From a virus, in IMG/VR virus record IMGVR_UViG_3300028840_001431, positions 1 through 62,650 of that record: a DNA stretch of 62,650 nt. One strand, written 5' to 3'. Under the pieces are notes generated by a model. It worked only from the letters and a program-made list of their open reading frames with translations, searched no databases and was not told the DNA's origin. A program made the translations under genes and the position numbers. The stretch's first letter is position 1, and each line of letters starts with the position of its first letter. Positions 1 through 58,418 of the stretch are shown here, in pieces.

Positions 1-429
1 AAGCATATCTCGATCTTGGACGTGAGAAAGGGCAAGTGGGCATCGGATAGGATTGCAGATGAGATGCTTGACGTTCAGTTAGAGTGGAACCCCATTCTTT
101 TCACGGCTGAACAGGGCCATATCAACAAGACCTTGGGACCTTTCCTGAAGCTCATGATGAAGCAAAGGGGCATTACGATCAACCTTGATCCCCGAGTCCC
201 CGTGACCGATAAGGTGTCCCGAGCCCGCACGGTCCAAGGCCTGAGCAAGCAAGGGATGGTCAGTTTGCCGAAGAGAGGTCCCGATCAGCCAGCATGGTTA
301 TCTGATGTCCGAATGCAGTTGAGGCGTTTTCCCTACGGGAAAAATAAGGACTTTGTTGATGCCTTAGCATGGATGGGGCAAGCGATTGATGAGGTATTCA
401 AATCCAAGTGGGTTGGGGTAGCGACATGA
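1..429 (+). CDS. terL: Terminase large subunit, C-terminal part (continues from 62650)
   Basis: The reading frame is open from base 1 and is the same frame as the partial gene that runs off the right end; the first 144 bases duplicate 62507-62650. This part is the end of the RNase-H-like nuclease domain, which cuts concatemeric DNA during packaging. An AEQG segment about 35 residues in and an acidic KDFVDALAW segment near the end fit the second and third metal-binding positions of terminase nucleases; the first (AIDFA) lies near 62430. Joined across the ends, the protein is about 500 residues, normal for the family. Its stop overlaps the next start as ATGA. Confidence 0.88.
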   Translation, partial: KHISILDVRKGKWASDRIADEMLDVQLEWNPILFTAEQGHINKTLGPFLKLMMKQRGITINLDPRVPVTDKVSRARTVQGLSKQGMVSLPKRGPDQPAWLSDVRMQLRRFPYGKNKDFVDALAWMGQAIDEVFKSKWVGVAT

Positions 430-697: not shown

Positions 698-910
698 ATG
701 GATCAAAAAGACCTTCATCATCGTTTCACGTATCATCCACCGACCGGGAATCAGCCTGAGAAGTATGAGCAGATCAGGACGATAGCCCGTAATTTCTCTG
801 ATAACCTAAACCTTGCTTGCCCGGACAGCCGGGAAAAGAGTCTTGCGATCACCAAGCTTGAAGAGGCGGTTATGTGGGCAAACGCCGCTATTGCCAGAAA
901 TCCGAAGTAA
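698..910 (+). CDS. acb2: Acb2-like anti-CBASS cyclic-nucleotide sponge
   Basis: 70 residues. The segments HHRFTYHPPTGNQPEKY (residues 7-23) and TKLEEAVMWANAAIARN (52-68) are the hallmark of the small helical Acb2 (T4 Vs.4-like) family. Known members form hexamers that sequester cyclic di- and trinucleotide signals of CBASS and some Thoeris defences. It should act in the host cytoplasm early in infection. An AGAGGAGG-type ribosome site sits just upstream of the ATG. Family members are often somewhat longer, but both signature segments are intact here. Function is inferred from sequence similarity recalled, not from a search. Confidence 0.85.
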   Translation: MDQKDLHHRFTYHPPTGNQPEKYEQIRTIARNFSDNLNLACPDSREKSLAITKLEEAVMWANAAIARNPK

Positions 911-930
911 TATCCACAACTAAAAATTCG

Positions 931-960
931 TTGACTTCAGATGATAGCAGATGAGAGGAT
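931..960 (+). promoter_or_regulatory. Possible sigma70-type promoter for 1092
   Basis: TTGACT at 931 is a near-consensus -35 box. With 18 bases of spacing the -10 would be GAGGAT at 955, with GATATG just beyond. The match is only fair. Its position, just before the long untranslated stretch ahead of the 1092 gene, favours a real start site. Confidence 0.3.
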
Positions 961-970
961 ATGAGAGACT

Positions 971-1057
971 AGGACGGGGGAGTAATCGTGGTTTTTTCAC
1001 CTGACCGGGTTTCATAGGGTTCCCCCTCAAGTGTCCTTTCCCATGGTATCCCCCGTC
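971..1057 (+). promoter_or_regulatory. Long-range inverted repeat in the leader of gene 1092
   Basis: GGACGGGGGA at 971-980 is exactly complementary to TCCCCCGTCC at 1048-1057, so a leader RNA could close a 10-bp GC-rich stem around a 67-base loop. The loop contains a run of T and a small GTG/CAC hairpin. The ribosome site of gene 1092 (GGAGGG) lies just 3' of the stem. It may be a structured leader or an attenuator. Confidence 0.4.
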
Positions 1058-1091
1058 CCCTTACTAATCCCTTAAATGGAGGGACCTCGCA

Positions 1092-1601
1092 ATGGAGGAA
1101 GCTCAATGGAGCACCGAATTGACCCTTGATGAAGGGTACATGATTGGATCTCTCGCCGCTTGTCGTATCGTCCGAAAATTCCACTACAAACGAAAGAAGA
1201 GTCACGGTGGTCATTCCCGGAGAGATAATCGGATCATTTGGGCCGATTCGATCAATGGGTTGATGGGTGAGTATGCCGCGTCAAAGGTCCTTGGCTTGCC
1301 TTGGACCCCCGGCGGGCCGATGATTACCCATGGTGATATTGCCGAGGCTATTGAGGTCCGAACCCCGTGGAAACGGAATGGGAACCTCCTCATCTACAAG
1401 AGCGATACCTTACAGGTCCCGTTCGTCAAGATGAAGGGTGAGTTCCCGGTCTACCATGCGGTGGGTTGGATCTTGGGTGATGAGGCCCGATGTGATGACT
1501 TTTGGTGGAAAGGGGGTGATCCTCCATGTTGGAGCGTACCTGACCGATGCCTGACATCGATGGAACGATTCAAACCTTGGCTTGAAGGACGGTATATATG
1601 A
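1092..1601 (+). CDS. Putative PD-(D/E)XK-fold phage protein
   Basis: 169 residues. The pattern GLMGEYAASKVLGL (57-70), then GDIAEAIEVRT (81-91), then a GNLLIY strand and a YHAVGWILGDEA strand near the end resembles the E...D...E-x-R/K core of phage proteins with a restriction-endonuclease-like fold. Candidate active residues are E60, D82 and E88. The final lysine is replaced by R90 or supplied elsewhere, so activity is uncertain. GGAGGG precedes the ATG. The stop overlaps the next start as ATGA. Confidence 0.5.
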   Translation: MEEAQWSTELTLDEGYMIGSLAACRIVRKFHYKRKKSHGGHSRRDNRIIWADSINGLMGEYAASKVLGLPWTPGGPMITHGDIAEAIEVRTPWKRNGNLLIYKSDTLQVPFVKMKGEFPVYHAVGWILGDEARCDDFWWKGGDPPCWSVPDRCLTSMERFKPWLEGRYI

Positions 1602-1768
1602 GCACGTTGTTGGATCTAGCTTGGCAACATACGATTGGAGCCATCGCCTCTTCATTGGTGGGGTTCCTGACGTTCTTGGTGATTGTTGCCTTTGTTGGCC
1701 TCTTAATCCTGATAACCCGATATCGGTCAAAGCCTGAAGGTCCCATGAAACCCATCGACGAAGAGTGA
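1598..1768 (+). CDS. Small single-pass membrane protein
   Basis: 56 residues. The ATG overlaps the previous stop (ATGA), which supports the start. One strong hydrophobic span covers roughly residues 12-40 (IGAIASSLVGF, then VIVAFVGLLILI), followed by a short basic tail (RYRSK). The topology predicts an inner-membrane anchor. I do not recognise a family. It could be a small holin-like or superinfection-related peptide, but nothing decides this. Confidence 0.55.
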   Translation: MSTLLDLAWQHTIGAIASSLVGFLTFLVIVAFVGLLILITRYRSKPEGPMKPIDEE

Positions 1769-1811
1769 ACCGCAAAGAGTATGAAACCCTTACAAACTAT
1801 CGTGAAAGGAG
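1743..1811 (+). repeat. Four half-sites of the 36-bp intergenic repeat
   Basis: ATGAAACCC at 1745, GTGAACC at 1764, ATGAAACCC at 1781 and CGTGAAAGG near 1800 are spaced 19, 17 and about 19 bases. This is the rhythm of the large array at 2009-2430. The last site runs into the ribosome-binding site of gene 1819. Confidence 0.6.
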
Positions 1812-1818
1812 GAAGTCA

Positions 1819-2001
1819 ATGCGAGCATTGCAAGAGCAAGTAAGAATACAATGTTCAGATGGAAATTGGAATTATGATCCGTACATGCACGGCATGGCTA
1901 ATGGTTTGATTTGTGCTTTAGCTACCATCGAGGGGAAAGAGCCGAAATATCTCAACCCGCCGGAGAAGTGGCTATGTGATAACGAGGTTGAATGCGGCTG
2001 A
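1819..2001 (+). CDS. Small protein of unknown function
   Basis: 60 residues. I chose the ATG at 1819 because AAAGGAGG sits at 1804-1811. A longer in-frame version could start at a GTG at 1765, which overlaps the previous stop, but that extension consists of repeat half-sites rather than ordinary coding sequence. The product has a YDPYMHGMANGLICALATIEGKEP core and two late cysteines, a pattern I associate with unnamed small phage proteins. Confidence 0.55.
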   Translation: MRALQEQVRIQCSDGNWNYDPYMHGMANGLICALATIEGKEPKYLNPPEKWLCDNEVECG

Positions 2002-2008
2002 TTCCCAC

Positions 2009-2430
2009 GTGAGCCTGAATATTGCTGGAACCCTTAAAGACTGTGTGAAGCCTTGTCGCGTTGGAACCCATAATAATCATGTGAGCCGTGGCCGTATGAA
2101 ACCCTGATTATACCTGTGAGCCGAGAGAATTGTGAAATCCTTATGACCGACTGTGAGCCTAAAAACCGTGAACCCCTACGACCTTCAGCGGAGTTTGGTG
2201 GAGGTGGACCCCATCCCCCCGTGATGAATCGATGATCCTTGGAACCCGATTAAGCTCAAGTGAGCCTAGCACACCCTGAAACCCTGAGTGGCTTGCGAGT
2301 CAACAGTTGATGAAGCCCATTAATACGGTATGAAGTTTGGACTCAATGAATCCCTACCATCATGTATGAAGCCATAGTTATCTTGGACCCCAATCCTAAC
2401 AAGTGAGTCTAATGGAGATCGTGAAACCCT
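2009..2430 (+). repeat. About 12 degenerate 36-bp tandem units in a 463-base gene-free stretch
   Basis: No gene fits 2002-2464. Instead two related half-sites alternate every 16-21 bases. GTGAGCC-like sites lie at 2009, 2045, 2081, 2116, 2152, 2188 (weak), 2223, 2260, 2295 (weak), 2328, 2364 and 2403. GGAACCC or TGAAACCC-like sites lie at 2027, 2063, 2097, 2132, 2168, 2205, 2240, 2277, 2310, 2345, 2383 and 2421. Each series has a period near 36 bases while the spacer sequence differs in every unit, unlike a recent tandem duplication. The array ends about 25 bases before the ribosome site of gene 2465. It looks like a protein-binding array, either regulatory or centromere/origin-like. Confidence 0.75.
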
Positions 2431-2464
2431 AACAATATTACGCCTTTGAGCAAGGAGGACAGAG

Positions 2465-2923
2465 ATGAAGCATCAACTAGACCCCGATATGATGGCCAAA
2501 GAAGAAAAGCGTCCCGAGATGCCAGATAACGCCGGGATGGCTAAGGACCCTTATCGTATGCCTGTTACAAGCGTTAATGAAGCAATTCTCAGGAACATGG
2601 AGGGCATGAGATCCCTCATGGAAGAGATGGTTCAGCTAACCCGTGAGATGGCGGGCCATGAGGTCAGGATCTTCCCCCCTGCCATGGATGAGAAATATAC
2701 CGGGGAGGTCTACAAGCGGGACAACGGGGAAGAGGTCCCGGAGAGTGAGTGGGTGATCTTCCGCGTGACCGATCATCTCCTTCCGAACGTGCTCAGGGCC
2801 TATATGGACCTTTGCAAGTCGGTGGGATGTAGTGAGAGGCACATCAACGGCATTGGTGGGCTTCTTCAGCGGGTGGAGCATTGGCAAGCTACCCATCCCC
2901 ATCGGGTACACATGCCGGATTAG
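2465..2923 (+). CDS. Hypothetical phage protein
   Basis: 152 residues, with AAGGAGG just upstream of the ATG. The N-terminal 35 residues are polar and rich in M and P. Residues 40-66 form a likely amphipathic helix (ILRNMEGMRSLMEEMVQL). The rest contains EVPESEWVIFRVTDHLLPNVLRAY and a C-S-V-G-C segment. I do not recognise the family. It lies directly downstream of the 36-bp array, which may control it. Confidence 0.6.
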   Translation: MKHQLDPDMMAKEEKRPEMPDNAGMAKDPYRMPVTSVNEAILRNMEGMRSLMEEMVQLTREMAGHEVRIFPPAMDEKYTGEVYKRDNGEEVPESEWVIFRVTDHLLPNVLRAYMDLCKSVGCSERHINGIGGLLQRVEHWQATHPHRVHMPD

Positions 2924-2960
2924 CCATTACGAATTGAAACCCTTGCAATCATAGGTGATC
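2919..2960 (+). repeat. Intergenic 36-bp repeat half-sites
   Basis: A weak TTAGCC at 2919, a strong TTGAAACCCT at 2934 and GGTGATC at 2954 keep the 16-20 base spacing. The last one doubles as the AGGTGA ribosome-binding site of gene 2962. Confidence 0.45.
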
Positions 2961-2961
2961 A

Positions 2962-3876
2962 ATGTACGCTCATCAGGTTATGGAGTGGCTCGACAATCAA
3001 GCGGTGCATCCGGGGCAAATGCCGGATAACTACCGGAGAGACTTGAAATTTCTACGGGAGGCTATTCGCAAGGCCGTCAAGTATCATATGGGATTCATCG
3101 GTGATTTCTATGATATTTTCAAGCATAGAGTCCTTGGTGAGCCGCTCTTTACTGATGACGTGGTTTGCATCCCCCCTTACAATTCGATTTGGGTGGATTG
3201 GAAAACCTCCAAGAGTGCGGGGATCAAGAGGCAAGCGATATTGTGTCATCACTTCAACGATCATAGCCATCCCCATAGGCGACTTGATTTCACCCCGTTC
3301 ACGTATCAAAACCATAATGGATGGGATTGGACTTACATTCCGATCATAGCTCATGTGGATTTCGACAAGAAAGGGGAGTCAGAGAGATCTGTCAGCTATA
3401 GTTCATCTCTTACCCCTGAGGAGTGGGATCAGTACGGGAACCCCGATAAGAATGATAAGAAAGACCGCGGCCAAACAGGGGCCATCAGGCATATGGCGGT
3501 TCATATGACGGCCATGGATATGCTGTTTTCTTTCCTGAATTGTAAAAACGTCAAGACAATTCCCGTTGATCCTGATAAGAAGCTATTGAAGAAGAGGGCC
3601 AAGAGAAACAAGCTCCCCATTCTGAGATATCACGTCCTGAAGGTCACGGGAGTCAAGATCAAGCAGGATGGGACGATTGGACGGGGCAATCGAGATCTTC
3701 CCCTTCATACGGTATGCGGTCACATCAAGGACTATACCGATAAGGGCCTATTCGGTAAGATCAAGGGGCGGTTCTTCTTTGCCGCTCATCTCAGGGGCTC
3801 AGCCGATCACGGTATGGTGATGAAGGATTACGAAACAGTACCGGAGGAAAGACATGAACAGACGATCATTTGTTAA
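2962..3876 (+). CDS. Conserved-type phage hypothetical protein
   Basis: 304 residues. AGGTGATC lies 5-6 bases before the ATG. The C-terminal half (LPLHTVCGHIKDYTDKGLFG, then KGRFFFAAHLRGSADHG) matches a pattern found in phage proteins of unknown role with an R/C-G-H-x-K-x-Y motif, a G-L-F-G segment and a final H-x-R-G. Residues 200-240 are very basic. The end overlaps the following Tat-signal gene by 23 bases, so the two are probably co-translated. It may bind nucleic acid, but no catalytic motif is certain. Confidence 0.6.
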   Translation: MYAHQVMEWLDNQAVHPGQMPDNYRRDLKFLREAIRKAVKYHMGFIGDFYDIFKHRVLGEPLFTDDVVCIPPYNSIWVDWKTSKSAGIKRQAILCHHFNDHSHPHRRLDFTPFTYQNHNGWDWTYIPIIAHVDFDKKGESERSVSYSSSLTPEEWDQYGNPDKNDKKDRGQTGAIRHMAVHMTAMDMLFSFLNCKNVKTIPVDPDKKLLKKRAKRNKLPILRYHVLKVTGVKIKQDGTIGRGNRDLPLHTVCGHIKDYTDKGLFGKIKGRFFFAAHLRGSADHGMVMKDYETVPEERHEQTIIC

Positions 3877-4462
3877 GGCAATCATAGCGGTTGGAGCCTC
3901 TACCATAGTGAAACCCGCTCTTTCTCTGCTCCCCAAGGCTAAAGCCGTGAGTTCTCCGGCGAGTTCTCCAATTGGAGATTTGGAGATCCCCAAAAATGCC
4001 TTTGTAACGTCCGAGCAGATCAAGGCCATAAGGAGGTTGCTTGCTCGTGGCGAAGTGGCCTTTAATTGGCCTCGGGTCCATGGGAAGGCCTCGGTGGTCG
4101 ATGATATGTATCGACAAAACAGGCCGATAGGGCATTTCAAACACCTTGAGCTTCCAAAGGCTAAGACGGTGAGTTTCAGGCGATATGAGGAGCTTCCCAC
4201 GGTGCCTGAGCCCTTAGCTGAGGGGATGATCCCGAGTGGTGAGCGATTGGCCTATGCAGAGTTTGTCCCTTGGGATCATTACTATAATGCCGCGAAGTTA
4301 AACGAGGAATGGTTGAAGAGGTTTGAGGTTGCTTCAACCGCTTCTGAGGTCCCTCTTATCCAGCAACAGGACCTCAATAAAATGGCTAAGCGTTTGGGCG
4401 AGAACGTTGCCCGAGTGAAGGAAAGCCTTATCAAGGCATTGATCAAATCAGCAGTCAGGTGA
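3854..4462 (+). CDS. Tat-signal protein that is a truncated paralogue of the major capsid protein
   Basis: 202 residues. The N-terminus NRRSFVK followed by a hydrophobic AIIAVGASTIV stretch is a twin-arginine signal peptide, predicting export of a folded protein. Residues 60-137 resemble capsid protein residues 22-82: RRLLARG against ARLLMRG, QNRPI against QSRPI, SFRRYEELP against KFRRYESLP, PLAEGMIPSG against PLAEGIPPKG. Residues 147-163 (KLNEEWLKRFEVASTAS) resemble the capsid C-terminus (ILNQLWMARLEVAATA). The capsid middle, about 235 residues, is absent. The last 40 residues form a helical tail (KMAKRLGENVARVKE). GGAGGA precedes the ATG inside the preceding gene. It could be an exported capsid decoy, assembly regulator or structural part. 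Confidence 0.75.
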   Translation: MNRRSFVKAIIAVGASTIVKPALSLLPKAKAVSSPASSPIGDLEIPKNAFVTSEQIKAIRRLLARGEVAFNWPRVHGKASVVDDMYRQNRPIGHFKHLELPKAKTVSFRRYEELPTVPEPLAEGMIPSGERLAYAEFVPWDHYYNAAKLNEEWLKRFEVASTASEVPLIQQQDLNKMAKRLGENVARVKESLIKALIKSAVR

Positions 4463-4527
4463 TAGCGGAACCCTAGTGAGTATCTATGTTAAAAAGCGAT
4501 TAACAATGTTAATTTTGAGGTAACACC

Positions 4528-5085
4528 ATGAAGATAACAAGACGCGGATTCCTGAAGCTGTTAGGCGTTGGTGGTCCGGGATTAGCGGCGACCGCTACGG
4601 CTAAGATGAACCCCGTCAAAGGCCTTGAGGCCCTATTTCGGAACCTTCCCCAAGCAAAAGGGATTAGGGATGGGCAAGTCATCCTTGGATTTGATCCTAA
4701 GGTGATGTATGGTGATTGGATGAAGTCCGGGATTATCGTAAAACCGGAGATGTATGGAGTCTATGGGCCGTGGCGACCGTCCCCGAAACCGGGAAAGAAG
4801 CCGGGAGATTTGGGGTATTATGACTTGAGCCAAGTCCCTGATGAAACGATGAGGAAGGTACGGAAGAGCATTGAAACCTTTATCCCGAGGAAATGGCGAC
4901 CCCATGTAGTCATTGACCTTTCGGCTTCGGGTGATATCATTTGGTGGAGGTATCTTCCACCGGGGATGAGTCCGATCAGGAACCAGAAGCCCCCGGTTGA
5001 TACGTTCTTCCCCGAGAAGAGGAAGTCAAAGTTGACCGGAAAGCCCTTGAGAGAGGGTGAGCGTATCTCGTATTGGGATGATTGA
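4528..5085 (+). CDS. Second Tat-signal protein, function unknown
   Basis: 185 residues. TRRGFLKLLGVGG is an almost ideal twin-arginine motif, followed by a hydrophobic stretch ending near GLAATATA, so cleavage is likely around residue 25. The mature part is basic and rich in proline and glycine (YGPWRPSPKPGKKPGD) with a HVVIDLSASGDIIWWRYLP strand pair. No cofactor-binding motif typical of redox Tat substrates is visible, and I do not recognise the fold. GAGGTAA lies upstream of the ATG. It follows the capsid-like Tat protein and precedes a Sec-exported protein, so 3854-5663 looks like an export block. Confidence 0.7.
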   Translation: MKITRRGFLKLLGVGGPGLAATATAKMNPVKGLEALFRNLPQAKGIRDGQVILGFDPKVMYGDWMKSGIIVKPEMYGVYGPWRPSPKPGKKPGDLGYYDLSQVPDETMRKVRKSIETFIPRKWRPHVVIDLSASGDIIWWRYLPPGMSPIRNQKPPVDTFFPEKRKSKLTGKPLREGERISYWDD

Positions 5086-5160
5086 GCCATTTGAAAGTAG
5101 GAACCCAAGATAGATTTTGTGAGCCTAATGACTGCTGGAGCCCTAGATAGTGTGTGAAAT
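5082..5160 (+). repeat. Five half-sites of the 36-bp repeat between 4528 and 5181 genes
   Basis: TTGAGCC at 5082, GGAACCC at 5100, GTGAGCC at 5119, GGAGCCC at 5137 and GTGAAAT at 5154 are spaced 17-19 bases, alternating as in the main array. They end 8 bases before the TTTGGAGG ribosome site of gene 5181. Confidence 0.65.
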
Positions 5161-5180
5161 CAAAACTTTGGAGGTATGAA

Positions 5181-5663
5181 ATGAAGAGAATGAATTTGAG
5201 AGATTGGATTGCTTTCGTTTGTGTCGTCATTATCCTTGCGTTTGTCCTTACGCCGATGTTTGCAAATGCTCAAAACAAGGTCTATCAAGCGGATCTTCAC
5301 TTGATGTGGGAACATTCCGAGCATCCTTCCAACATGGCCGGGGGTGGATATCGGATCTATTGGGGTCCCGATGAGGGTGGACCGTGGCCTCAGTCTAAGG
5401 ATATCGACTTTGCAACTGTGGCCCCCGGTACGCCTTTGCCGAGTGGAGTGACGACCTATGAGGTCCCTCAGATCTTGATCCCGATTGACAATCCTCAGGC
5501 CTTATCAGCGGTCACGCGGTACATAGTCATGACGGCTTGGAATCAGGGAGGAGATGAATCAGATCCATCGAATGAAGTCACGGTTCCCATGAAATTCAAG
5601 CTTGCGGGGGTCAATGCTTTGAAGATCATCTTCAAGGCACTCATTGAAATCACGATTCCATGA
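5181..5663 (+). CDS. Sec-exported protein with fibronectin-III-like domain
   Basis: 160 residues. I chose the ATG at 5181 because TTTGGAGG sits 6-7 bases upstream; an in-frame GTG at 5154 lies in a repeat half-site. The N-terminus has basic residues (KRMNLR), a hydrophobic core (WIAFVCVVIILAFVL) and an ANA-Q cleavage site, a textbook signal peptidase I substrate. The mature part (VYQADLHLMWEHS, GGYRIYWGP, RYIVMTAWNQGGDESDPSNEV) has the strand pattern of a fibronectin type III domain, common in surface or adhesive proteins. The stop overlaps the next start as ATGA. Confidence 0.7.
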   Translation: MKRMNLRDWIAFVCVVIILAFVLTPMFANAQNKVYQADLHLMWEHSEHPSNMAGGGYRIYWGPDEGGPWPQSKDIDFATVAPGTPLPSGVTTYEVPQILIPIDNPQALSAVTRYIVMTAWNQGGDESDPSNEVTVPMKFKLAGVNALKIIFKALIEITIP

Positions 5664-11279: not shown

Positions 11280-11876
11280 ATGAACAAACGATTTGCAATT
11301 GTAGCGTTGACGGCATTGATGGTTTTCGTTTTTGCGGGAATGGCCTTGGCTGACCCTTTCACCGGAAGGCCTCACACTTGGAGAGGTGAGCAGATTTACC
11401 GGGGAGAGATGAAGTTCAGGGGTGATAACGCGGATCTCACTTTGGAATCCGGGTCCGAGATTACCCTGACCACGGCTCCCCGATATACGACCACAACCCT
11501 TACTTGGACTGCTGGCACGGGATACACGGTTCCCTCGACCGTAAAAACCGGGGCCGTCTATCAATTCGATATCTCTTCGGCCACAAGTTCAAGTGCCGGG
11601 GGCGATAATGGCATCATGGATGTCGGCACGGCAGGGGTGACAATTCATATTCCCACCCCAACCGCAGTTAATCATGATACGATCTTCGGGCTTCAGAAGA
11701 TCGACTCCGGGACAACGGACGCTATTCTCTACTGTGCGGGCCTTCCGATCTTTTGGGCTTCGTCCGGTACAACCAATGTGAGCAAGGAAATGGATGCCCA
11801 AGGGGATATCGTTTGGTTGCAACTTAATTACAATGGTGCGGTTAGTGTCTTTGCGGTCAACGAGTATATGCATTAA
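11280..11876 (+). CDS. Sec-exported beta-rich protein inside the head module
   Basis: 198 residues. AAAGGGAGGAATAAG lies before the ATG. The N-terminus (MNKRFAIVALTALMVFVFAG) ends in an ALA-D cleavage site, a clear signal peptidase I substrate. The mature part is rich in T, S and G with alternating strands (TTTLTWTAGTGYTVPS, GVTIHIPTPTAVN), as in fibre, spike or decoration domains. Its place between portal and scaffold genes would normally predict a cytoplasmically assembled virion protein, so the signal peptide is unexpected. Alternatives are a secreted accessory factor or a displayed adhesin. Confidence 0.65.
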   Translation: MNKRFAIVALTALMVFVFAGMALADPFTGRPHTWRGEQIYRGEMKFRGDNADLTLESGSEITLTTAPRYTTTTLTWTAGTGYTVPSTVKTGAVYQFDISSATSSSAGGDNGIMDVGTAGVTIHIPTPTAVNHDTIFGLQKIDSGTTDAILYCAGLPIFWASSGTTNVSKEMDAQGDIVWLQLNYNGAVSVFAVNEYMH

Positions 11877-11915
11877 TCCTTAGAGTTCTGAAATCCTAAA
11901 TACATATGTGAATTG
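11872..11915 (+). repeat. Intergenic 36-bp repeat half-sites
   Basis: ATTAATCC at 11872, CTGAAATCC at 11889 and GTGAATTGG at 11908, spaced 17 and 19 bases. The third merges with the TTGGAGGAG ribosome site of gene 11927. Confidence 0.4.
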
Positions 11916-11926
11916 GAGGAGTTGAG

Positions 11927-24698: not shown

Positions 24699-27600
24699 AT
24701 GGCCTACTTTACAACGAAGTTGTCAGATATTGTGCCGGGAATCGATGACACCAACCCCACTAGGCACTTAGTCCAACCCGCTCAACAACCGAGTGCATCT
24801 CAGCAAATCGAGAGTTCCTTGATGAGTCGAAACGACCGGGAATATCTCGATCAGTTGCGGCGGGCTCATGTGCCTAAGGGTAGGCCCCACCTGATGGGAG
24901 CCGTAAAGAGTACCGCTCTTGAGGCTCTTGGAGGTTTGGGAGGCCTTTTGGAGATCCCCGGCGAAGTCATTTCTCCCCTAAAGCAAGCGGGTGAGAACGT
25001 CAGGAATTTCTATTCTCAGATTGCCGATGAGGACCCCGATGTTCAGGAATACACCAAATCAGTCATCGAAGGGCGGGAACCATGGGTTGGAGAATTCGCG
25101 GGCTCCCTTGGTCCAACGGGTATGGCCGCTCTTCTGCATACCGTTCCGCTTGCTGGTCGAGCATTGGCAACGGCTTATTTCTATAAGCTCAACAAAGAAG
25201 AGGCTGAACAACTTGCACTCGACAAGGGAGCAGATCCGCAAAGAGCCCTATGGACCGGAAGGGTTGCCGGGGCCATCAATTCAGCCTTGGATATATGGGG
25301 ATTAGATCGGATTTTTGCGGCCTCTCAACCCGCTAAGAATATTGGAAGATTCCTTCTCAATCTTGGGATGGCCGGAGTTTCCGAGGGTGCAACTGAGGGC
25401 CTTCAGGAAGTCATCTCCGATATGTCGTCCGAGTTTGCGGCAAAGCCCCCTGAGCAGGACTTTGGTGAGTTTATCTCCGGGATGGAGCAAAGGCTCCCAA
25501 CCTTCTATAATCGTTTCAAGGAAGCCGCCCTTATCGGTGGTCCCATGGGTGCTCTATTTGGTGGAGCCGCCGGGGGAGCCGCCGCTCTTCAGAGGCGGGG
25601 ACGTGCAAAAGAAGCCGAGAGGCAAAGAGTACAGACCGAGCAAGAGGCACAAGAACGGGCTCAGGAAGCCGCCCAAGACCAAAAGCGTACAAACATAGCC
25701 GATGCCGTCCAAATGGCCCTTGTGGCCGAACCGGGGGGTCCTAGAGACTTTATTTTGAAGGGGGCCTTGATTCCGGCTATGACCGAGCAAACGGGTCCCG
25801 CAACCCCGGCCCAACGTCGAGCCTTGCCGGAACCTCAAAGAGCCCTCCCTGAACCTCAGAGGATGCTCCCTCATTCCACTATCCCACCAATTGAAGCTGG
25901 TCCTTTCCCGCTAGTACCGACTGAACCGCGTAGGCCTACCGAGGCCCCCACAACGGTCTTGCCGATAGGTGAAGAGGCCGTTGAGGCGGGTCCCTACCCC
26001 ATAGTTCCTACCGAAGGACCAAGAACAGATATCGGAAGAGCGGGCCTTGCTCGGAGAGTTCAGCAAGTTGCCGGGATAGGAGAACCGACCGGGGAAGTCA
26101 TAGAGATGGCTCAACCCGCCGAGGAGGAAGCCTTTGAACCCGTCGAGCCCACGGTTGAGGTCGGTGAAGCCGCCGAGGTTCCCGAGCTTACCAAAGAAGA
26201 GGTTGATCTTAAAGAGGCCTTCAGAAAAGCCCAAGAGAAAGCCGCCGCCGCTGAGCCCAAGCCGGAGAGGGAGAGAACTCGATTTGATGACATTGCCGAT
26301 GAGCTTGGGATTACATATGACGGCCCCCATCAGGGCCTAGAGCAGTTCACCACCGATAGCGGATATACGTTCTCACTCCCGCCGGGGCAAGTAACCATTA
26401 CATCAGTTCGTAAGGCAATGCCGGAAGATGAAAGGCCCGATTTTGTTCCCGGCCCTGAGCGTGAGGGAGCCGAGCCGCTTGAATTTACCGAGCCGAAACT
26501 TCCCGCCGATGTTCACGGCATTGTCATGGCTGACCCCGTTGACCCTGATAGGCAAGTCTTTTACCGAAGGGAACAGGCCGGATTTCTTCCAGAGTATGAC
26601 ACAGACGATGCCGATGCCGCTGAGCTTCTTGGGAAAAGGATAGCTTTGAAACGTGGGGTTGGGCGACCTCACAAATATGGGAATCTTATCAGGATTCTTG
26701 AGAGGAAAGGCATTCCTTACCGATTGCTTGGAAAGGATGAAACCGAGGATTTCTCTGATAAGAGGATCTCAGGCATTGGGAGCATTGATTACATTCAGGA
26801 TGAATACGCGGTCAAATATCAGGGAATCAATGAAGATGGAACCCGCCGATGGACCTATGAGGGTCAGGTTGAGGAGATAGCCGGGAAAGAGTTTACAACA
26901 AAGGGACTTGATGAGGATGAGGTTGCCGCTGAAATAGGGAAGCTTGAAGATGAGTATATAGCCGAGCAGACCGAAGCAGAGGAAGCCCTCCCGCCTGAAG
27001 AGGAGGTTGAGGTTGAAGAAGAGCCGGAAGGAGAAACCCCGCCGAAAGAGCCTAAGCCCGAGCCAACGGCTGAGGCAAAACCCGACAAAGAAGCAACCTT
27101 AAAGATACTCAGAAGGCGTCAAGAGGATTGGAATAAACAAGCGTTGAAATATGAAGGGGGGAAAGGGATACCCGTAGGGGCCGAGGGGGTTCAATATCGT
27201 TGGGCCTCTGATGCAATGATCATCATGCAAAAGGCGGTTGAGGCAGGAAAGACGATTGATGAAGCCGCGACCGAAGCCAAAGCTACGGCCCGTGGGTGGA
27301 TAGAGAAACATAATGCAAGACGGCCCAAAGATATCAATTGGAAGAGATGGGAGGGGGCCGCTGATACCTATATTGACGATGCCGTTAGGGAAGTCAAGCG
27401 GTTGGAGCCGGAAGCAATCACCGAAGAGCCTGAGGAAGTCACCGAAGAGGCTCCCGAGGTTCGGGAGGTTGCCCCTGAGGATGTCGTCAATGATGCAATG
27501 AAGAGAGTTCAGGAAGCCGCCGAGAATGCCGGGGCCGATTACTCAAACACCCCCATGATCGAAAAGGCCAAGATTGCCGATGTTCTTTGGGCCAATACCA

Positions 27601-30600
27601 TATTGACCGAAATCGAGGATGCCGCCGGGAATGAATATTTCTCTGATGGGCATTGGGCAATCAAGAAAGACCAAAAGAAAGCATACACCCCGCTTCAGAA
27701 AAGAGCAGATAAGGTCAAGAGCATTCAGCCTTATAGGGGTGAGATGAAGGTCAAACTAGAAGATATCATTAGCACAGAGAACAACCTTCCGCTTACCTAT
27801 GTTGGAACTACCCAAGAGGAAAACGCTGATCCTCAGGCTTGGTATGTTGACGGGATGGGAAACCTCAGGGCTATCAATGAAAACATAGGGACCTTTTTCA
27901 AAAGCAGAATTGGGGCTTTGAACTTCCGGGGAGATCCGGCTAAGGATATCTCATTTAATATGTATGCAGGGGATGAGCTTGTTGGTGTGATTATGCCAAT
28001 GAGAGCCCCCTTCCCCGTGGAGGAGGTTCAGCTTCCTGAAGGGGCCGAGATCGAAGAGCCCGAAATAGAGAAGGGTGAAGCCGCCGAAGGGGAGAAGCCC
28101 AAGAAGAAGAAACGAAAAGGACGTTGGACCGATACCGGGAGAGAGATCCACGGGAAACGTGCTTCTAAGGATAAGAGTGAACGAATTGAAGCCATCAACG
28201 TTGAGCTAGACTCAAACATCGATGAGAAAGCCGACCCTGAGGCCTTCCTCAAGGCCATCAATAAACTCACCAACAAATCGAAGATCCTGAAGCTTGACCT
28301 CCCTGAGGGGGCGACTCCGGGGACTCTTAGGTTCCTCAAGACCTTCCGAAATAAGATCAACGGTTTCAACCGTTGGGCGGCTAAGGAGTACAAGAACTGG
28401 CAGGATTCAACCGACAAGGGGGCCATCCTAAGGCATCTTGAGGCCAATCCAGAATATCAGGTCAATGTCAAGAATCAGGCCTCTGAATACATAGCAACCC
28501 TTGAGCTTCTTGAGGAAGCCATCGAAGAGACTTCGACTGTCCAAGAGGCTCGGGATAAGCTTTGGGAATTATTCGTTGAAGATCCCGCGATTGACAAAAT
28601 GAGAAAGGTGTATCCGAGCAGATTCAAGTTTACCCCGTTCGGTGAGTCAATCGTTGGAATGTTTGCTCAGGCTTTTCCGGGGGCCGATCAATGGACCCGG
28701 AGTTCAAGGAACGCCTTCAAGTGGACTTTCGGTAAACATGCTGATTCCGAGATGGCCGATGAGGAGGGGGCTGATAGAAATCAGGCCTTTGAGCATCGAC
28801 CGGGAAGGCGTTTTAACTTCATGGATATCGAGGATGACCCAAATAAATACAGGAATGGCAAGGACGTTGACCCGAAGACTCTTGAAAAAGTCTTTGGGTT
28901 TACCGGGATTAAGTGGGGAAATTGGGTAAGCGGAAGAGAGCAACAACACGTTGCAAATCTGTTTTATGACGGCTTTCACGAACTAATGAAGGCCATCGGC
29001 GGGGCTCCCGCAAGGGCTATTTCGGTTCCCGCGACTGATCCGGCCTTGGCTATTGGCTTTGGAGGTTGGGGCCGTGGTGGAAGGACAGCCGCCCATTACC
29101 AACCATCAGATCACTTCATCCACCTTACCAAAACAAAGGGTGACGGTTCTGTTTCTCATGAATGGGCTCATTCTTGGGACAAAGGTTCCAAGATTGACAT
29201 GAGCAACAATAAAGACGAAAGCCTCAGGGATATTGATCCACTTAAAGATATCAAAATAGCCCTCAGGACAAAGTATAACTTTGAAGCCATCAGGGAAGAG
29301 GCCTATCAGCTTCTCAAGGGGTTACACCACGAAACAAGGCAATCAAGAAAGAATCGGGTTGACAAGGCAAAGGCATGGCTCAGGTCACATTGGAAGCAGA
29401 TATCAGAGGAAGAAACTCAATTCTATCGGGATGCAAAGAAGCTTGATGCCGGGAAAGACCCGTATTATCGGACAGAAGTTGAAATGTTTGCACGGGCCTT
29501 TGAGTCATGGATTGCTGATAAGATTGGTTCTGATGCACTATTCATCGTTGATCCTGAGTTTGTGAGCGGTAGCTATATCAAGGATCACTTCAATTGGGAC
29601 GTTGATGCTTACCCGAGTGGTGAGGAACGGGAAAGACTGAACTCACTCTTTGAGAATCTATTCCGAAATATTACATGGGACAAGAATGGGATTCCGACCG
29701 TTGGGCCTGATTTTGTTCCCCTCTTCATCAATACCCAACGAGAGGTTGAGGCCGAGCTTGAAAAGTTCCTTGAGAAGCTTGATGAAATCTATAATGCAAT
29801 TTATGGCGGCAAGCCTTCCAATGACGGGCTTTACTGGTATGCCTATCTCGACACCTCCCGAGCCCCCGGAATGCAACCCTCTGGAATGGTTGCCTATGAC
29901 GATAAATATAAAGTAGCCGAGCAGATTGAAGAGCATGAAGAACGGGGCGGCATTGGAGCCATAGGGTATTCTGGACCGCTGATAGCCGATGACGTTGTTG
30001 AGATGGGCCTTGTCCCGATCAATCACGACAAGAACGATGATACCCTTTATCTAGGGGGAGCAAATGGCCAAACTTCAGAGAATTGGACAGATGGCAATGG
30101 AGCATTGGGGGAAGTATCGTCCCAAGATGGTAAGCAGTTTGAAGAGAAGGGGACTATTGTTACCGATCCTGAAGGAAGTGGAAGAAGCTTGGGAGAGGGG
30201 GATGACGGACTTGGTATCAACGAAGGGGGTGAATCCTCGGATAGCGGAGGAACTGATGAATCGGGGGCTGATATTTCTGCCGGAGGAACCCGAGCCGATC
30301 CCGGAAATGGTCCGGGGGCTGATCCCGCTAGAATAAATGAAGATTATGCAATAGGTCCGAGGGATTATATTGATGCCGATCTCGATCAGGTTAGAACCTT
30401 CACCAATGCTATCTCAGCCATTAGGATTCTAAAGGAGGTTGAAGAGGGACGATATCCGGCAACTGAGGGGGAGCAAAGAATCCTCCAAGCCTTTCCGGGT
30501 TGGCAAGCTATCAAGGCCGAGCTTGATCGGTATTCGTATGGAGCCATTCAAAACCGTCATGACATGATCTCCGGGATGCTCAGCCGGAGTGAGATGAACT

Positions 30601-33600
30601 CGGCAAGGAAATTCAAGAACGATTCCCATGCAACCCCATTGCCTGTGATTGATGCCATATGGGAAACGCTCCAAAGGTTCGGCTTTACGAGTGGCCGAAT
30701 CCTTGACTTTGCTATGGGTAAGGGCTCGATTTTTGGGGCTATGCCTAAGTCCATGAGGAAAACTTCTGTCCTGACCGGAATTGAACCCGATCAGATCCAA
30801 AGGAGAATTGCCAAAAAGCTTTATCCTAATCAGTACATAACGGATACCAGATTTGAAGAAACTCCCTTAGCAAACAATTACTTCGATCTAGTTTTCACCG
30901 ATATGCCCCATACAGCCAATCGGTTGAGCAAGCCTGATCCCGAGCATAATCCTCTTGGGTGGGAGTCTGATCCTCATTGGCTCAATAAGGCAATCAATCA
31001 CACGCGGGAGGGAGGTCTAATTGTAGCCATTGCGGAAACGGAGTTGATGGATGCTCCTAACAATGCCGATGCCCGGAAGAATATCGGTGATAAGGTTGAC
31101 TTCCTTGGGGCTATTAGGCTTCCGAAACAGTTATATGGGGATATGAGCAAGGATGTCATCTTCCTTCGCAAGAAAGGCGGGGGAGGTGTCGAGATAAAGA
31201 AGAAGGCATGGGAAAAGGTGAACGCCGGGGCTCGGATTCCCGTCAATGAGTATTTCGTTGAAAATCCCCAAATGGTTCTAGGTCAACTTGAACTCGACAA
31301 TGACCCGATATCGTACAGAATAACGAAGTATGCCCTCAGCCAAGACAAAGCTGATAACGTTGAAAGGGAAATCAACGATCTTGCAACCACCGATCTTCCG
31401 ATAAACATCTATTTTGAGGAGATCCCCGGAACCGAGATAGATCTTCTCAAGACTATCCCTGAGCCTGACTTTGTAAAGGATGGGGCCTTTGTAATTGAAG
31501 GAAAGAAGCTTTATCAAAGCATTGGAGGGAAGCCCGTTGAGGTGAAGGATTCTCCCCGTATTCGTGGCATGGTCGGAATGAGGGGAACCATCAGGGGGTT
31601 GCTCAGGTCCTATGCCGCCGGGGAAACAAAAGCCAAAACGGAGAAATGGAGGAAAGCCCTCAATAAGCAGTATGATGAATTTGTCAAAAAGTTCGGCTTC
31701 GTGAATGCGGTTCCGAATGTCAAGGCATTCATCCAAGATCCTGATGCCCCTCTCCTTCTCACCCTTGAGCGGTGGGATCATGAGCGGCAAAAGTCTCTAG
31801 GTAAAACCGCAATCTTTGAGCCGGGATTCTTCAAGCCTGTTACCCCTCCAACCTCGGCTAAGAATTCATCGGAAGCCCTGAATCTCTCGTTAGCATGGAA
31901 GAGCCGAATTGACTTCCCGTGGATGACCCGTTTGAGCGGGGTTCCTCGGGATCAATTGATTAGCGAATTGAAGGGCAAGATCTATGATGATCCAGAGGTG
32001 GGGTGGGTAACGGCTGATGAATATCTGAGCGGCAATGTGAAGCATAAGTTGAGAGTTGCTCAGAAGATGGCCGAGGTCAACAAGAAGCAATATGGTCCGA
32101 ATGTCAGGGCCTTGAAGAAGGTCATCCCCGCCGATTTGCAATCCCATGAAATCAACGTAAGGCTCGGGGCGGCATGGGTTCCCCCTAAGGTTATTGGGGA
32201 GTTCATGAAAGACCTCACCTTTGAGTATAATGTCAAGGCCGAGTATAGCCCCGTTCTCGGGAAATGGCAGATCAAATTTACGGGAGCCAGCAAAGCCGCC
32301 GCTAAACGAAACAAAGATTCAGCGGTAAGAAGCACAGAGGCAACCTCTGAATGGGGGACCTCTGATGTCAATTTCTTCGATCTCCTAGGGTATGCCCTCA
32401 ATGGTGGGTTCCCCGATGTGAAGAGGGTTGCAGTCGATTCAAAGGGAATGCCTCACACAGATGAGAATGGCAGAAAGATCATGGTTCCTGACGTTGAGGC
32501 TACTGATGCCGCAAATTACAAGCTTGAACAGATCAAAGAAAGGTTCTCTCAATGGGTATGGGAGGATCAGGCTAGGCTTAGGAATCTGACGCGGATCTAC
32601 AATGAAAAGGTCAATGCCTATGTGAAGAGGGTTCACAAGGGGGATCACCTCGTATTTCCGGGCAAAGTCCCAAATGCAATCTTTGATTTTATGGATCACC
32701 AAAAGAATGCCGTTTGGAGATTCCTACAGCAAGGGAGTGTATATTTTGCTCATGAGGTTGGGACTGGGAAAACCTTCTCAATTATAGGTTCAGTAATGGA
32801 AGCCCGAAGGCTTGGGCGGGCGAAGAAACCCATTGTTGCCGTCCAAAATGCCACGTTCGATCAGTACAAAAGGGATTGGGCCACGGCATATCCTGCCGCA
32901 AATGTGCTATTTGCCAAGATCCCAAAGAAGGAAGGCCCCGAAAGGAGTGCCATCCTGAAGAAGATTTCATCAGGAGATTATGACGCAATTGTTGTCAATC
33001 ACCACTCCTTGAGTTTCCTTGAGGTGAGCCCAACCGCTCAGATTGAACAACTGAGGAAGGAGCAAGCCGAGCTTAATGAGTCATTGGGAATATTGAGCTT
33101 GCAGGGAGCCGGAGAGGAAACCATAAGGAAGATATCAGGTGCGGTTGCAAGGTTGGAGGATAGGATTGAATCTCTATCCGGGGCTCCAACCACCAATGAA
33201 GTCTATTTCGACAACATTGGGGCTGATATGATTGTTGTCGATGAGGCTCACAGCTTCAAAAACCTCGATATCAAAACAAGCTATGGGAATGTCAAGGGAA
33301 TCGACTCAGCGGGGGCTCCATGGTCAATGAATCTGTACCGGAAGATTCAGTATATCCGAAACAGGTACGGAAAGAATATCATCCTAGCCTCAGGAACTCC
33401 GCTAACCAATAGCGTGGGTGAGCTTTACACCATTGCAAGGTACGTTCAGCCCGATATGCTTGCCGCCCATCACCTCCAAGGCTTCGATGCATGGGCTAAC
33501 ACCTTTGGCTTGATCTCCAACGAATCGGAACTAACACCAACCGGGACGGGCTATGTGAATTCAACCCGATTTAAGAGCTTTGTCAACATTCCCGAGTTAG

Positions 33601-54657: not shown

Positions 54658-54808
54658 GGACCTAGCTGATACGATCATATGGACCGCTGAGGAGAGGGTT
54701 AAAGAGCAGGGAGTTCATGTGAACTCAGCTATCCATGCAATCACCCTTGAGGTTGATCAGTTCCTTATGGAGTACATGAAGGACCATAATCCTAGAAAAG
54801 CCAAATAG
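54650..54808 (+). CDS. Small helical early protein
   Basis: 52 residues from a GTG, supported by AAAGGAGG at 54635-54642. It overlaps the previous stop. Sequence IKDLADTIIWTAEERVKEQG and AITLEVDQFLMEYMKDH suggests two amphipathic helices. No family recognised. Confidence 0.55.
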   Translation: MIKDLADTIIWTAEERVKEQGVHVNSAIHAITLEVDQFLMEYMKDHNPRKAK

Positions 54809-54837
54809 ATAATGAAGCCCTAGAGTTGAGGTGATCC
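54797..54837 (+). repeat. Intergenic 36-bp repeat half-sites
   Basis: A weak AAAGCC at 54797, ATGAAGCCC at 54812 and GTGATCC at 54831, 15-19 bases apart. The last overlaps the GAGGTGATCC ribosome site of gene 54838. Confidence 0.4.
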
Positions 54838-55957: not shown

Positions 55958-56408
55958 TTACGGTGAGGGATACCTCAGCTTTAAGAGGAAACCCACGTTT
56001 GATGAAGCCAAGGATGTGATGACCTTCATTGATTTTGAGGAGGAAAACCTTGCTTGGCATCATGGGGACCTCTTAAATGCCATCGATGATTATTTTGGTG
56101 AGGAAGCTTCTCAATTGGTGGGGCCGAAGCTTGCAAGGAAGGCGACCACCCGTAAGCATGTAGCCGGGAAATTCAAACCACCTCAAAGAATTCATACCCT
56201 TAGCTTCAGCCATCACCAAGAAGTGGCTCCAATTAAGAATATCGAGATGAGGCAGGAACTATTGAACTTGGCCGATGACAATGGGTGGAACGTCACTCAG
56301 TTGAGGGATGAAAAGAATAGGCGGCTTGGGAAGATCCCCAAAGCCAAAACGGTTGAATGCCCCGGCTGTCATTTGGTCTTTGACCCAAAGAAAATAGAGG
56401 GAGAATAA
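55938..56408 (+). CDS. ParB/KorB-like HTH protein with C-terminal zinc knuckle
   Basis: 156 residues. I chose the second ATG (55938), spaced correctly from GGAAGGA. LSFSHHQEVAPIKNIEMRQE then LLNLADDNGWNVTQLRDEK matches the HTH region of ParB/KorB-type proteins. The end has CPGCH, perhaps half a zinc site. It may recognise the repeat arrays (partition-like or transcriptional silencing role), but that is inference. The stop overlaps the next start. Confidence 0.55.
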   Translation: MKPDLVDYGEGYLSFKRKPTFDEAKDVMTFIDFEEENLAWHHGDLLNAIDDYFGEEASQLVGPKLARKATTRKHVAGKFKPPQRIHTLSFSHHQEVAPIKNIEMRQELLNLADDNGWNVTQLRDEKNRRLGKIPKAKTVECPGCHLVFDPKKIEGE

Positions 56409-57472
56409 TGCCTAAGCGGAAAGAGCCTTTGAGCGAAGAAGAGATTGCCGCTATTACATTAGAAACCAAACTGAAAACCGAGGTCATGTACGCAATCCAA
56501 AAGGCAAGGATTGCCGCCGATCTTAGGATTCAGGCCTTTGTCAGAGATAAGAGGATGACCGAAGTCAAGGCTAAGGCCCTGCATATGTGGCTAAGCGATA
56601 TGGCTTCGGGCATGGAAAAGCACGTCAACGGGGAGGTGAGGGTCCTCCTCAAGGACGTTCCGATCTATAACAGATGGCTTGTGAATGTTTACGGTGTGTC
56701 AACCGCCTTAAGCGGCTCCCTCATTGCCGGGATAGGCGATATATCGCGGTTTGAGAAGGCATCGAGTCTTTGGAAATATTGTGGGCTCGATGTCATCCAT
56801 TGGTGTGATACTTGCCATATGCCCGCCCCTCCCGATCTCAAGGTTACGACCGGGGACGTTTGCCCCATGTGTCGGAAGGGGGAATTCATTGGTGAGGCTC
56901 CCCGCCGAATGTCAGGTCAGAAGATCCATTGGAGCCCCTTTCTGAGGTCAACGGTCTATAAGATAACAGAAAGCATCGTCAGGGCCGTCAGGGCTCCCGA
57001 GAAGAACTTCTATCGCAAGCTTTACGAAGAGAGGAAGGCAAGACACCAAGAGGAGCACCCTGAGTGCCGAATCTGCTATAAATGCGGGGCTCCATTGGTT
57101 GAGCATGAGAGAGTGAGAGTCAAGAAGGTCAACAAGAAAACCGGGAAAGAGACTGAGGAATGGTACAAAAAGCAAGATGAATGCCCAACCAAGGGTTGCA
57201 AGGGCAATCATGGGGGCTCAACCCATCCCTTCAGGAAAACGAAAGCCGGAGATCCCCTTTACCGTTACAGCAAGGGCCACATCCATCGGATGGCTAAGCG
57301 GTACATGGGGAAGGTCTTTATGCTCCACCTTTGGCTTATTTGGAGGAGTATCGAGGGTTTACCGATCAGCGGGCCATGGATTATCGAGCATGGTGGGCAT
57401 ATTCATTTCACTCAGCCGCCGCATTGGGAGCCTTTTGACATTGGTAAAAGTGGGGAGGTGGTAACACCCTGA
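56408..57472 (+). CDS. IS110/IS116-type transposase C-terminal domain protein with zinc inserts
   Basis: 354 residues. VYGVSTALSGSLIAGIGDIS (95-113), FEKASSLWKYCGLDV (115-129) and WSPFLRSTVYKITES (175-189), then FYRKLYEERKARHQEEH and GHIHRMAKRYMGKVFMLHLW match the Transposase_20 (IS110) domain. The N-terminal RuvC-like DEDD domain is missing, replaced by about 90 helical residues. Two insertions carry C-x-x-C pairs (CDTCHMP, CPMCRK; CRICYKCG, CPTKGC). No flanking inverted repeats seen. It is probably a domesticated phage protein rather than an active element. Confidence 0.65.
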   Translation: MPKRKEPLSEEEIAAITLETKLKTEVMYAIQKARIAADLRIQAFVRDKRMTEVKAKALHMWLSDMASGMEKHVNGEVRVLLKDVPIYNRWLVNVYGVSTALSGSLIAGIGDISRFEKASSLWKYCGLDVIHWCDTCHMPAPPDLKVTTGDVCPMCRKGEFIGEAPRRMSGQKIHWSPFLRSTVYKITESIVRAVRAPEKNFYRKLYEERKARHQEEHPECRICYKCGAPLVEHERVRVKKVNKKTGKETEEWYKKQDECPTKGCKGNHGGSTHPFRKTKAGDPLYRYSKGHIHRMAKRYMGKVFMLHLWLIWRSIEGLPISGPWIIEHGGHIHFTQPPHWEPFDIGKSGEVVTP

Positions 57473-58003: not shown

Positions 58004-58375
58004 ATGTCAAACATCAATACTCCGTTTATCATAGGCCCCGGCGGGGAGATTCCACCTCTCCTCACGGGGCTTTTTTCGTCTAACCCCATGACAATAGATG
58101 AGTTCCATAGGAACCTTGCCGTGGTGATACTGGAAGGATACCCGATATCGGAGTTATCCAAGAGATCACCCGCGTATGATTATCGAAGGCTTTGGATTGT
58201 CCTTCAGGCCTTTTGCATGAATACCCTCCCCGGCCACTACCGACAAGCTCATCGAATGACAATCGAGAAATATTGCAGAGTCAACCCCGAAACCCGAGAG
58301 ATTGGGTATCAACCGGGATGGGCGGCGTTGGAGTTCCTGAGGGAGTTTAAGGATGATTTCATAGCCAATTCTTAG
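58004..58375 (+). CDS. Small regulatory-region protein, start uncertain
   Basis: 123 residues from the ATG at 58004, which has GAGGT upstream; starts at 57983 and 58088 are also in frame. The first start would place a strong terminator-like stem inside the coding sequence, the last puts the gene right after it but has no ribosome site. Mature sequence IDEFHRNLAVVILEGYPISE, LSKRSPAYDYRRLW suggests a small helical protein. Function unknown. Confidence 0.45.
   Translation: MSNINTPFIIGPGGEIPPLLTGLFSSNPMTIDEFHRNLAVVILEGYPISELSKRSPAYDYRRLWIVLQAFCMNTLPGHYRQAHRMTIEKYCRVNPETREIGYQPGWAALEFLREFKDDFIANS
58035..58077 (+). terminator. Terminator-like stem with T6 tract
   Basis: GCCCCG pairs with CGGGGC, followed by TTTTTT. 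The loop contains a second GGAGA/TCTCC hairpin. It follows the sigma-like gene and overlaps the 5' end of gene 58004. Confidence 0.6.
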
Positions 58376-58400
58376 TCCCGAGGATGTGAAACCCTTTGAA
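58371..58400 (+). repeat. Intergenic 36-bp repeat half-sites
   Basis: A weak TTAGTCCC at 58371 and a strong GTGAAACCC at 58386, ahead of ACGAGGAGG, the ribosome site of gene 58419. Confidence 0.35.
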
Positions 58401-58418
58401 ATGATACGAGGAGGTCAG

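What the first reader, a model, noticed from the sequence alone, without database searches (positions are those of the whole stretch)
1743..1811. The same half-site rhythm recurs upstream of many ribosome sites
Short clusters of the half-sites occur at 1743-1811, 2919-2960, 5082-5160, 11872-11915, 54797-54837 and 58371-58400, nearly always just before, or merging with, a ribosome-binding site, keeping the 16-20 base spacing. That suggests a genome-wide regulatory element, perhaps acting on transcription or translation, rather than a single locus.
Basis: seen in the sequence. Interest (0 to 1): 0.75.

Follow-up and report, generated by a model that had tools for sequence, protein, structure and literature searches.

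The report
Guide-RNA units between phage genes
The repeated half-sites are small copies of a recently discovered viral guide-RNA array (TIGR-Tas), here scattered one or two at a time in the gaps between genes of a bacterial virus and fused to the start signals of the next gene.

Summary
A model trained only on the main array (2008-2440) finds eight strong units elsewhere on the + strand. They lie in exactly the six clusters named, 7 of 8 in intergenic gaps (300 shuffles: mean 0.48, maximum 3). The units are not DNA operator half-sites. They are TIGR (tandem interspaced guide RNA) repeats: edge TGTGAGCC, 9-nt spacer, loop TGRAACCC, 9-nt spacer, 36 nt in all. The phage also encodes the partner protein at 56408-57472: NCBIfam TIGR_Tas 159 bits (cutoff 100), and its predicted fold best matches solved TIGR-TasR (Z 20.3), without the RuvC domain, so TasA-like.

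What seems not to be described is the layout. One- or two-unit mini-arrays fill intergenic gaps at six junctions. In 5 of 6 the upstream stop codon abuts the 5' edge, and in most the truncated 3' edge runs into the Shine-Dalgarno of the next gene. Another phage record with a distant Tas shows the same design, and 19 of 33 phage TIGR arrays sit between a stop codon and a start signal (random 4%).

Best reading: guides harvested from operon mRNA, possibly coupled to translation. The natural targets are unknown.

The parts
2008..2440 (+). Main TIGR array: 12 loop repeats (TGRAACCC-like) alternating with edge repeats (TGTGAGCC-like), 8-10 nt spacers, partly eroded in the middle
   Evidence: at least 5 stops in every one of six frames
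1729..1811 (+). Mini-array m1, two units; first unit overlaps the last codons of ORF 1598-1768; 3' edge runs into GTGAAAGGAGG before ATG 1819
   Evidence: unit scores 25.8 and 20.7; junction
2921..2961 (+). Mini-array m2, one unit; stop TAG then CC box, loop at 2935, 3' edge GGTGATC just before ATG 2962
   Evidence: score 26.2
5082..5160 (+). Mini-array m3, two units; stop TGA of the upstream gene is inside the edge TTGAGCC; loops 5099 and 5136; 3' edge TGTGA at about 5153
   Evidence: scores 20.2 and 24.3
11874..11920 (+). Mini-array m4, one unit; stop TAA then TCC, loop 11889, 3' edge TGTGAATTGGAGG before ATG 11927
   Evidence: score 22.3
54797..54837 (+). Mini-array m5, one unit; 5' edge AAAGCC inside the end of ORF 54650-54808, loop 54813, 3' edge GAGGTGATCC before ATG 54838
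   Evidence: score 23.7
58373..58410 (+). Mini-array m6, one weaker unit; stop TAG then TCC, loop 58387, no clear 3' edge, SD GAGGAGG before ATG 58419
   Evidence: score 19.3
56408..57472 (+). tas gene (354 aa, TasA-like: Nop/RNA-binding region without nuclease domain, with two cysteine-rich inserts)
   Evidence: NF052498 TIGR_Tas 159 bits, cutoff 100; 9mty_A E 9.9e-27; model pLDDT 81, TasR Z 20.3 and TasH Z 19.5

Best explanation
The clusters are mini TIGR arrays: one or two 36-nt guide-RNA units placed in intergenic gaps of the phage's + strand gene blocks, serving in trans the TasA-like protein encoded at 56408-57472. Shown by sequence: repeat anatomy, spacing, position between the stop codon and the Shine-Dalgarno, and the presence of a Tas protein. 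Inferred: the units are transcribed with the operon mRNA; TasA binds each unit through the UG (box D) and CC (box C) motifs; host RNase cuts within the edge repeats as in published TIGR systems; and the 36-nt guides direct TasA, which lacks a nuclease, to DNA whose two strands match spacers A and B. Also inferred and less certain: because the 3' edge abuts or is the Shine-Dalgarno, binding or cutting there would change translation of the next gene, linking guide supply to operon expression.
For: Repeat scheme matches the published one (edge/9 nt/loop/9 nt, UG start, CC(N) end, A-rich loop, truncated outer edges; PMC12045711). Tas assigned by curated model, PDB sequence match and fold. The same DNA pattern found blind in IMG/VR contigs is accompanied by a Tas gene in 16 of 18 non-coding array loci and 0 of 14 loci where a long ORF runs through the repeats; some of these contigs are near-duplicates. 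Eight units outside the array against 0.48 in shuffles. Loops in mini-arrays are about as intact as in the main array (4 of 8 against 6 of 12 exact TGRAACCC; sequences). All 20 spacer pairs differ. Record G020 (L124/L244) has the same stop-edge-units-edge/SD layout around and after its tas, twice ending in GTGAAAGGAGG as in m1; this loop-spacer-GTGAAAGGAGG string is found in only one IMG/VR contig, that one.
Against: No RNA data: transcription and processing are not shown. The published minimal arrays needed full edge repeats, whereas the outer edges here are truncated or replaced by stop codon and SD. The third base of box C is T, A or G here instead of the usual A. No self target above chance (5 sites at <=3 mismatches against 1, 1, 6, 1 for shuffled spacers) and no other target known. 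Widely dispersed mini-arrays far from tas were clear only in this window; of 21 other records scanned, one single unit (G004, L207:5807) and one cluster of small arrays near tas (G020) were comparable, and 18 of 21 had none before a start signal. No relative of this phage's operon was found, so conservation of the mini-arrays could not be tested.
Confidence: 0.72

Rival explanations
1. Translational operators: the junction units are not guides but binding sites for the Tas RNP (or bare TasA) on phage mRNA, which blocks or exposes the ribosome site of the next gene.
For: 3' edge overlaps or abuts the Shine-Dalgarno in m1, m2, m4, m5 and in two places of G020; 21 of 33 phage arrays have a start signal within 64 nt of their end, random 19%.
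Against: Each junction keeps two free, distinct spacers of guide length, which an operator would not need; arrays of 10-50 cores sit in the same position as single units.
Confidence: 0.15
2. Relics: the mini-arrays are decaying remains of formerly longer arrays and do nothing.
For: The middle of the main array has lost clear repeats (about 2180-2235 and 2295-2345); m6 lacks a 3' edge; a possible trace at 4466.
Against: Boxes and spacing in mini-arrays are about as good as in the main array while spacers vary freely; recurrence at six junctions and in G020.
Confidence: 0.09
3. DNA operator or promoter half-sites, as first read.
For: Regular spacing upstream of genes; strand-specific.
Against: 18-base spacing is not a multiple of the helical repeat; each unit begins at a stop codon and ends at an SD, which fits RNA; promoter-like sites in 900-5400 at shuffle level, 6 against 5.3; Tas present.
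Confidence: 0.02
4. Coding lookalike: 12-residue protein repeats read on the other strand.
For: 14 of 32 contigs with the same DNA rhythm have a long ORF (298-1228 codons) through it.
Against: In the window every frame has at least 5 stops across the array, spacing jitters by single bases, and units lie in gaps.
Confidence: 0.02

Closest known systems
TIGR-TasA systems (Faure et al. 2025, Science, PMC12045711)
   Same: Alternating edge and loop repeats with 9-nt spacers, 36-nt unit, UG/CC boxes, truncated outer edges, Nop-domain protein without nuclease, in a tailed-phage genome
   Different: Array is not beside tas; six extra mini-arrays of one or two units at gene junctions; no + strand terminator detected in 900-5400, the arrays instead run into the Shine-Dalgarno; box C is CC(T/A/G)
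TIGR-TasR (PDB 9mty) and TasH (9w04, 21kl)
   Same: Protein fold, model residues 10-342
   Different: No RuvC or HNH domain; two cysteine-rich inserts (about 131-160 and 221-275)
IS110 family transposases with bridge RNA (IS621, 8wt9)
   Same: RNA-binding domain fold (Z 13.4); Pfam Transposase_20 weak match
   Different: No DEDD catalytic domain; NCBIfam IS110 model far below cutoff (17 against 140 bits); arrayed guides
Polycistronic or operon-embedded box C/D snoRNAs
   Same: Works like: guide units with C/D boxes released from longer transcripts (published analogy in PMC12045711)
   Different: DNA target in TIGR; no K-turn; not tested here

Membership tests
TIGR-Tas system | Array of two alternating 8-12 nt repeats with about 9-nt spacers, 36-nt period | tested here: met
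   12 loops at mean 36.0 spacing, edges between
TIGR-Tas system | Both repeats start with UG and end with CCA, or a covarying form | tested here: met
   Loop TGRAACCC(T/A), edge TGTGAGCC(T/G); third base of box C differs from A in both repeats
TIGR-Tas system | Nop-domain Tas protein encoded in the same genome | tested here: met
   56408-57472, NF052498 159 bits against cutoff 100; TasR fold Z 20.3
[quoted passage not shown] not required by the mechanism) | tested here: not met
   Main array about 7 kb away round the circle; nearest unit (58387) 0.9 kb downstream
TIGR-Tas system | Array followed by a rho-independent terminator (the paper says 'typically'; not required by the mechanism) | tested here: not met
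   No + strand terminator-like site in 900-5400
TIGR-Tas system | Transcription and processing to 36-nt tigRNAs bound by Tas | not testable with these tools
   needs RNA
TasA (solo Nop) subtype | No RuvC or HNH domain | tested here: met
   Model residues 18-341 align to TasR 112-322; the N-terminal RuvC part of TasR has no counterpart
IS110 transposase | N-terminal DEDD RuvC-like domain and an IS110 model match above cutoff | tested here: not met
   Only the C-terminal family matches, below cutoff

The most novel reading that the evidence does not exclude
In tailed phages TIGR guides are gene-junction elements. The upstream stop codon and the downstream Shine-Dalgarno are parts of the edge repeats, so Tas-dependent maturation of each guide cuts the operon mRNA between cistrons and sets translation of the next gene. 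The phage thereby couples RNA-guided DNA binding to the expression of its own gene blocks.
Probability: 0.3. Interest if true: 0.82.

Novelty: new variant of a known kind. Interest (0 to 1): 0.62.

Why it matters
The natural role, targets and regulation of TIGR-Tas are open (stated in PMC12045711). A phage that scatters single guide units through its operons, fused to stop codons and ribosome sites, points to guide production during normal phage gene expression, and offers junctions small enough to test in E. coli. It also shows that looking only beside tas misses units, and that many contigs with this DNA rhythm (14 of 32 here) are protein-coding lookalikes.

Tried and rejected
Operator, promoter or iteron reading: rejected once the alternating 36-nt unit and the Tas protein were found. 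Coding repeats: rejected for the window, accepted for 14 of 32 pattern-picked contigs; these lookalikes were dropped from later counts. Rfam: no match in the window; no tRNA. Self targets of the 20 spacer pairs in the order A.rc(B), gap 0-2: chance level; the other order rc(A).B gave 8 sites at <=3 mismatches, best 2 mismatches; no shuffle control was run for that order. Target order was derived by me from the cleavage geometry in the paper, not read from a figure. Whole-collection target scans were not made, since 18-base matches would be mostly chance. Bacterial genomes: two strict three-repeat patterns gave 0 hits in the genome collection (84,980 species); strict patterns, so weak evidence of absence. 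Relatives of the portal, SNF2-type helicase, capsid and gene 2962-3876 were sought: 0, 1, 16 and 0 loci, none with the operon. Only one named phage record (Microcystis phage Mvi-JY20) has a weak match to this Tas, covering 19% of it; not followed. PADLOC has no hit for this Tas. In one search no box C/D Nop protein is listed among the rows shown; that shows nothing.

Literature: PMC12045711 seen as outline, parts 1-2 of the text, sections 8, 10 and 24 and found passages; PMC12385481 found passages only; the rest search listings. No mention of mini-arrays at gene junctions or of Shine-Dalgarno fusion was seen there. Supplementary figures (S4, S14) could not be read, and subscription papers and preprints are not held.

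Full report
CHECK. The window is a circular phage record: its last 144 bases repeat its first 144 and the terminase gene reads open across the join. The clusters named in the finding are all there. The main array, 2008-2440, alternates two short motifs, TGRAACCC and TGTGAGCC, every 16-20 bases; one full cycle is 36 bases. I built position weights from the main array only and scored edge-gap-loop-gap-edge units over the genome. At score >=19 there are eight + strand hits outside the array and they are exactly the six clusters; the - strand has one; 300 shuffles average 0.48 with maximum 3; 7 of 8 loops are in called gaps, 7.8% of the genome. At lower thresholds there is no clear excess. Gene calls are my own simple ones.

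IDENTITY. The scheme (edge repeat, 9-nt spacer, loop repeat, 9-nt spacer; both repeats starting UG and ending in CC plus one base; A-rich loop; truncated outer edges; 36 nt) is that of TIGR arrays (PMC12045711). The prediction that a Tas protein must exist was then tested. ORF 56408-57472 matches PDB 9mty_A at E 9.9e-27, NCBIfam TIGR_Tas with 159 bits against a cutoff of 100, and its AlphaFold model (pLDDT 81) aligns best to TIGR-TasR (Z 20.3, rmsd 2.6, 199 residues), then TasH (19.5) and IS621 (13.4). TasR's N-terminal nuclease region has no counterpart, so it is TasA-like.

RELATIVES AND A TRAP. Two DNA-pattern scans of IMG/VR (95 and 27 contigs) gave 32 contigs with repeated arrays. In 14 of them a long ORF (298-1228 codons) runs through the repeats and no Tas is found: protein-repeat lookalikes. 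Of the other 18, 16 have a Tas homologue in the same locus; several are near-duplicates (L042/L057, L120/L126, L122/L136). Of 10 records picked by DNA pattern alone and searched whole with the Tas model, 8 match; the two without (L118, L123) are lookalikes. A search with a Tas alignment gave 63 loci, of which seven lie in contigs already held.

LAYOUT. In the window the junctions read: stop codon of the upstream gene, CC box, spacer, loop, spacer, (TG)TGA edge, Shine-Dalgarno, start codon. Stop codons abutting box C: TGA-ACC (m1), TAG-CC (m2), TGA-GCC (m3), TAA-TCC (m4), TAG-TCC (m6); m5 has AAAGCC inside the upstream ORF. 3' edges: GTGAAAGGAGG (m1), AGGTGATCA before ATG (m2), TGTGAAATC (m3, about 15-20 nt before the SD), TGTGAATTGGAGG (m4), GAGGTGATCC before ATG (m5); m6 has no clear edge. 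In m1 the first unit lies inside the last codons of ORF 1598-1768. Gaps are 29-95 nt. There is no + strand terminator-like site in 900-5400.

GENERALITY. I scanned 21 other Tas-bearing records with weights from their own arrays (14 of them earlier). Their arrays lie close to tas (places). Isolated units followed by an SD and start: window 6 of 6 + strand hits, at four places (m1 and m2 fall inside the 700-base exclusion around the main array, and one cluster is counted in both registers); G004 1 (L207:5807, about 9.5 kb from tas); G008 1, barely above threshold; G020 5 of 9; the other 18 records none. G020 (L124/L244) has three arrays around tas: one before it ending TGTGAAAGGAGG; one between tas and the next gene, starting at the stop codon TAA-GAGCCA and ending TGTGTA before the SD; and one after that gene, ending TTGTGAAAGGAGG. 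A last scan for TGAAACCC, 9-12 bases, GTGAAAGGAGG hit one contig in IMG/VR, G020's, twice (the window's own record is left out of that collection). Over 33 arrays (window included; near-duplicate contigs left out; ends of the window array and of one G020 array set by hand), 28 begin near the stop of an ORF of at least 60 codons, 21 end within 64 nt of an SD with start, and 19 have both; random placement gives 21%, 19% and 4%. So lying between stop and start is general for phage TIGR arrays; dispersal over many distant junctions is, so far, special to this phage.

MECHANISM. Shown: anatomy, Tas, position. Inferred: co-transcription with the operon, Tas-dependent processing by host RNase as published, and guide use by a TasA without nuclease, hence binding, bending or blocking DNA and not cutting. 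The merge of the 3' edge with the SD suggests that binding or cutting affects translation of the next gene; this is the boldest step and untested. Against: the published minimal arrays needed full edges, and no target is known; self targets are at chance.

NOVELTY. Array and protein are a new member of TIGR-TasA; the scattered, SD-fused mini-arrays are a variant that I did not find in the papers held, with supplements and closed papers unseen.

Noticed in passing
window 1-144 and 62507-62650: Exact 144-base end repeat; terminase large subunit is one open frame when read across it, so the genome is 62,506 bases and circular or circularly permuted.
   Followed up: yes
window 24699-40247: One ORF of 5182 codons, a giant phage protein; not analysed.
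   Followed up: no
window 57540-57977: Gene after tas carries a sigma-70 region 4 domain (Pfam 36 bits, cutoff 24.1); a possible transcription regulator next to tas.
   Followed up: partly
window 55464-55775: HNH endonuclease-like small protein (DUF968, PHROG HNH) a few genes before tas; no sign that it is part of Tas.
   Followed up: partly
window 4463-4527: Gap with GGAACCC and GTGAG close together; may be a decayed unit (score 11.4, within background).
   Followed up: partly
L115, L117-L119, L121, L123, L125, L128, L130, L131, L133, L134, L137: Long ORFs antisense to a TIGR-like DNA rhythm with 36-base period; a trap for TIGR searches by DNA alone.
   Followed up: yes
L138:10802-11082: Array beside tas in which the Shine-Dalgarno of the next gene lies inside the last spacer and the truncated edge just before ATG.
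   Followed up: no
L207:5807: Single unit right before an SD and ATG, about 9.5 kb from tas, in record G004.
   Followed up: partly
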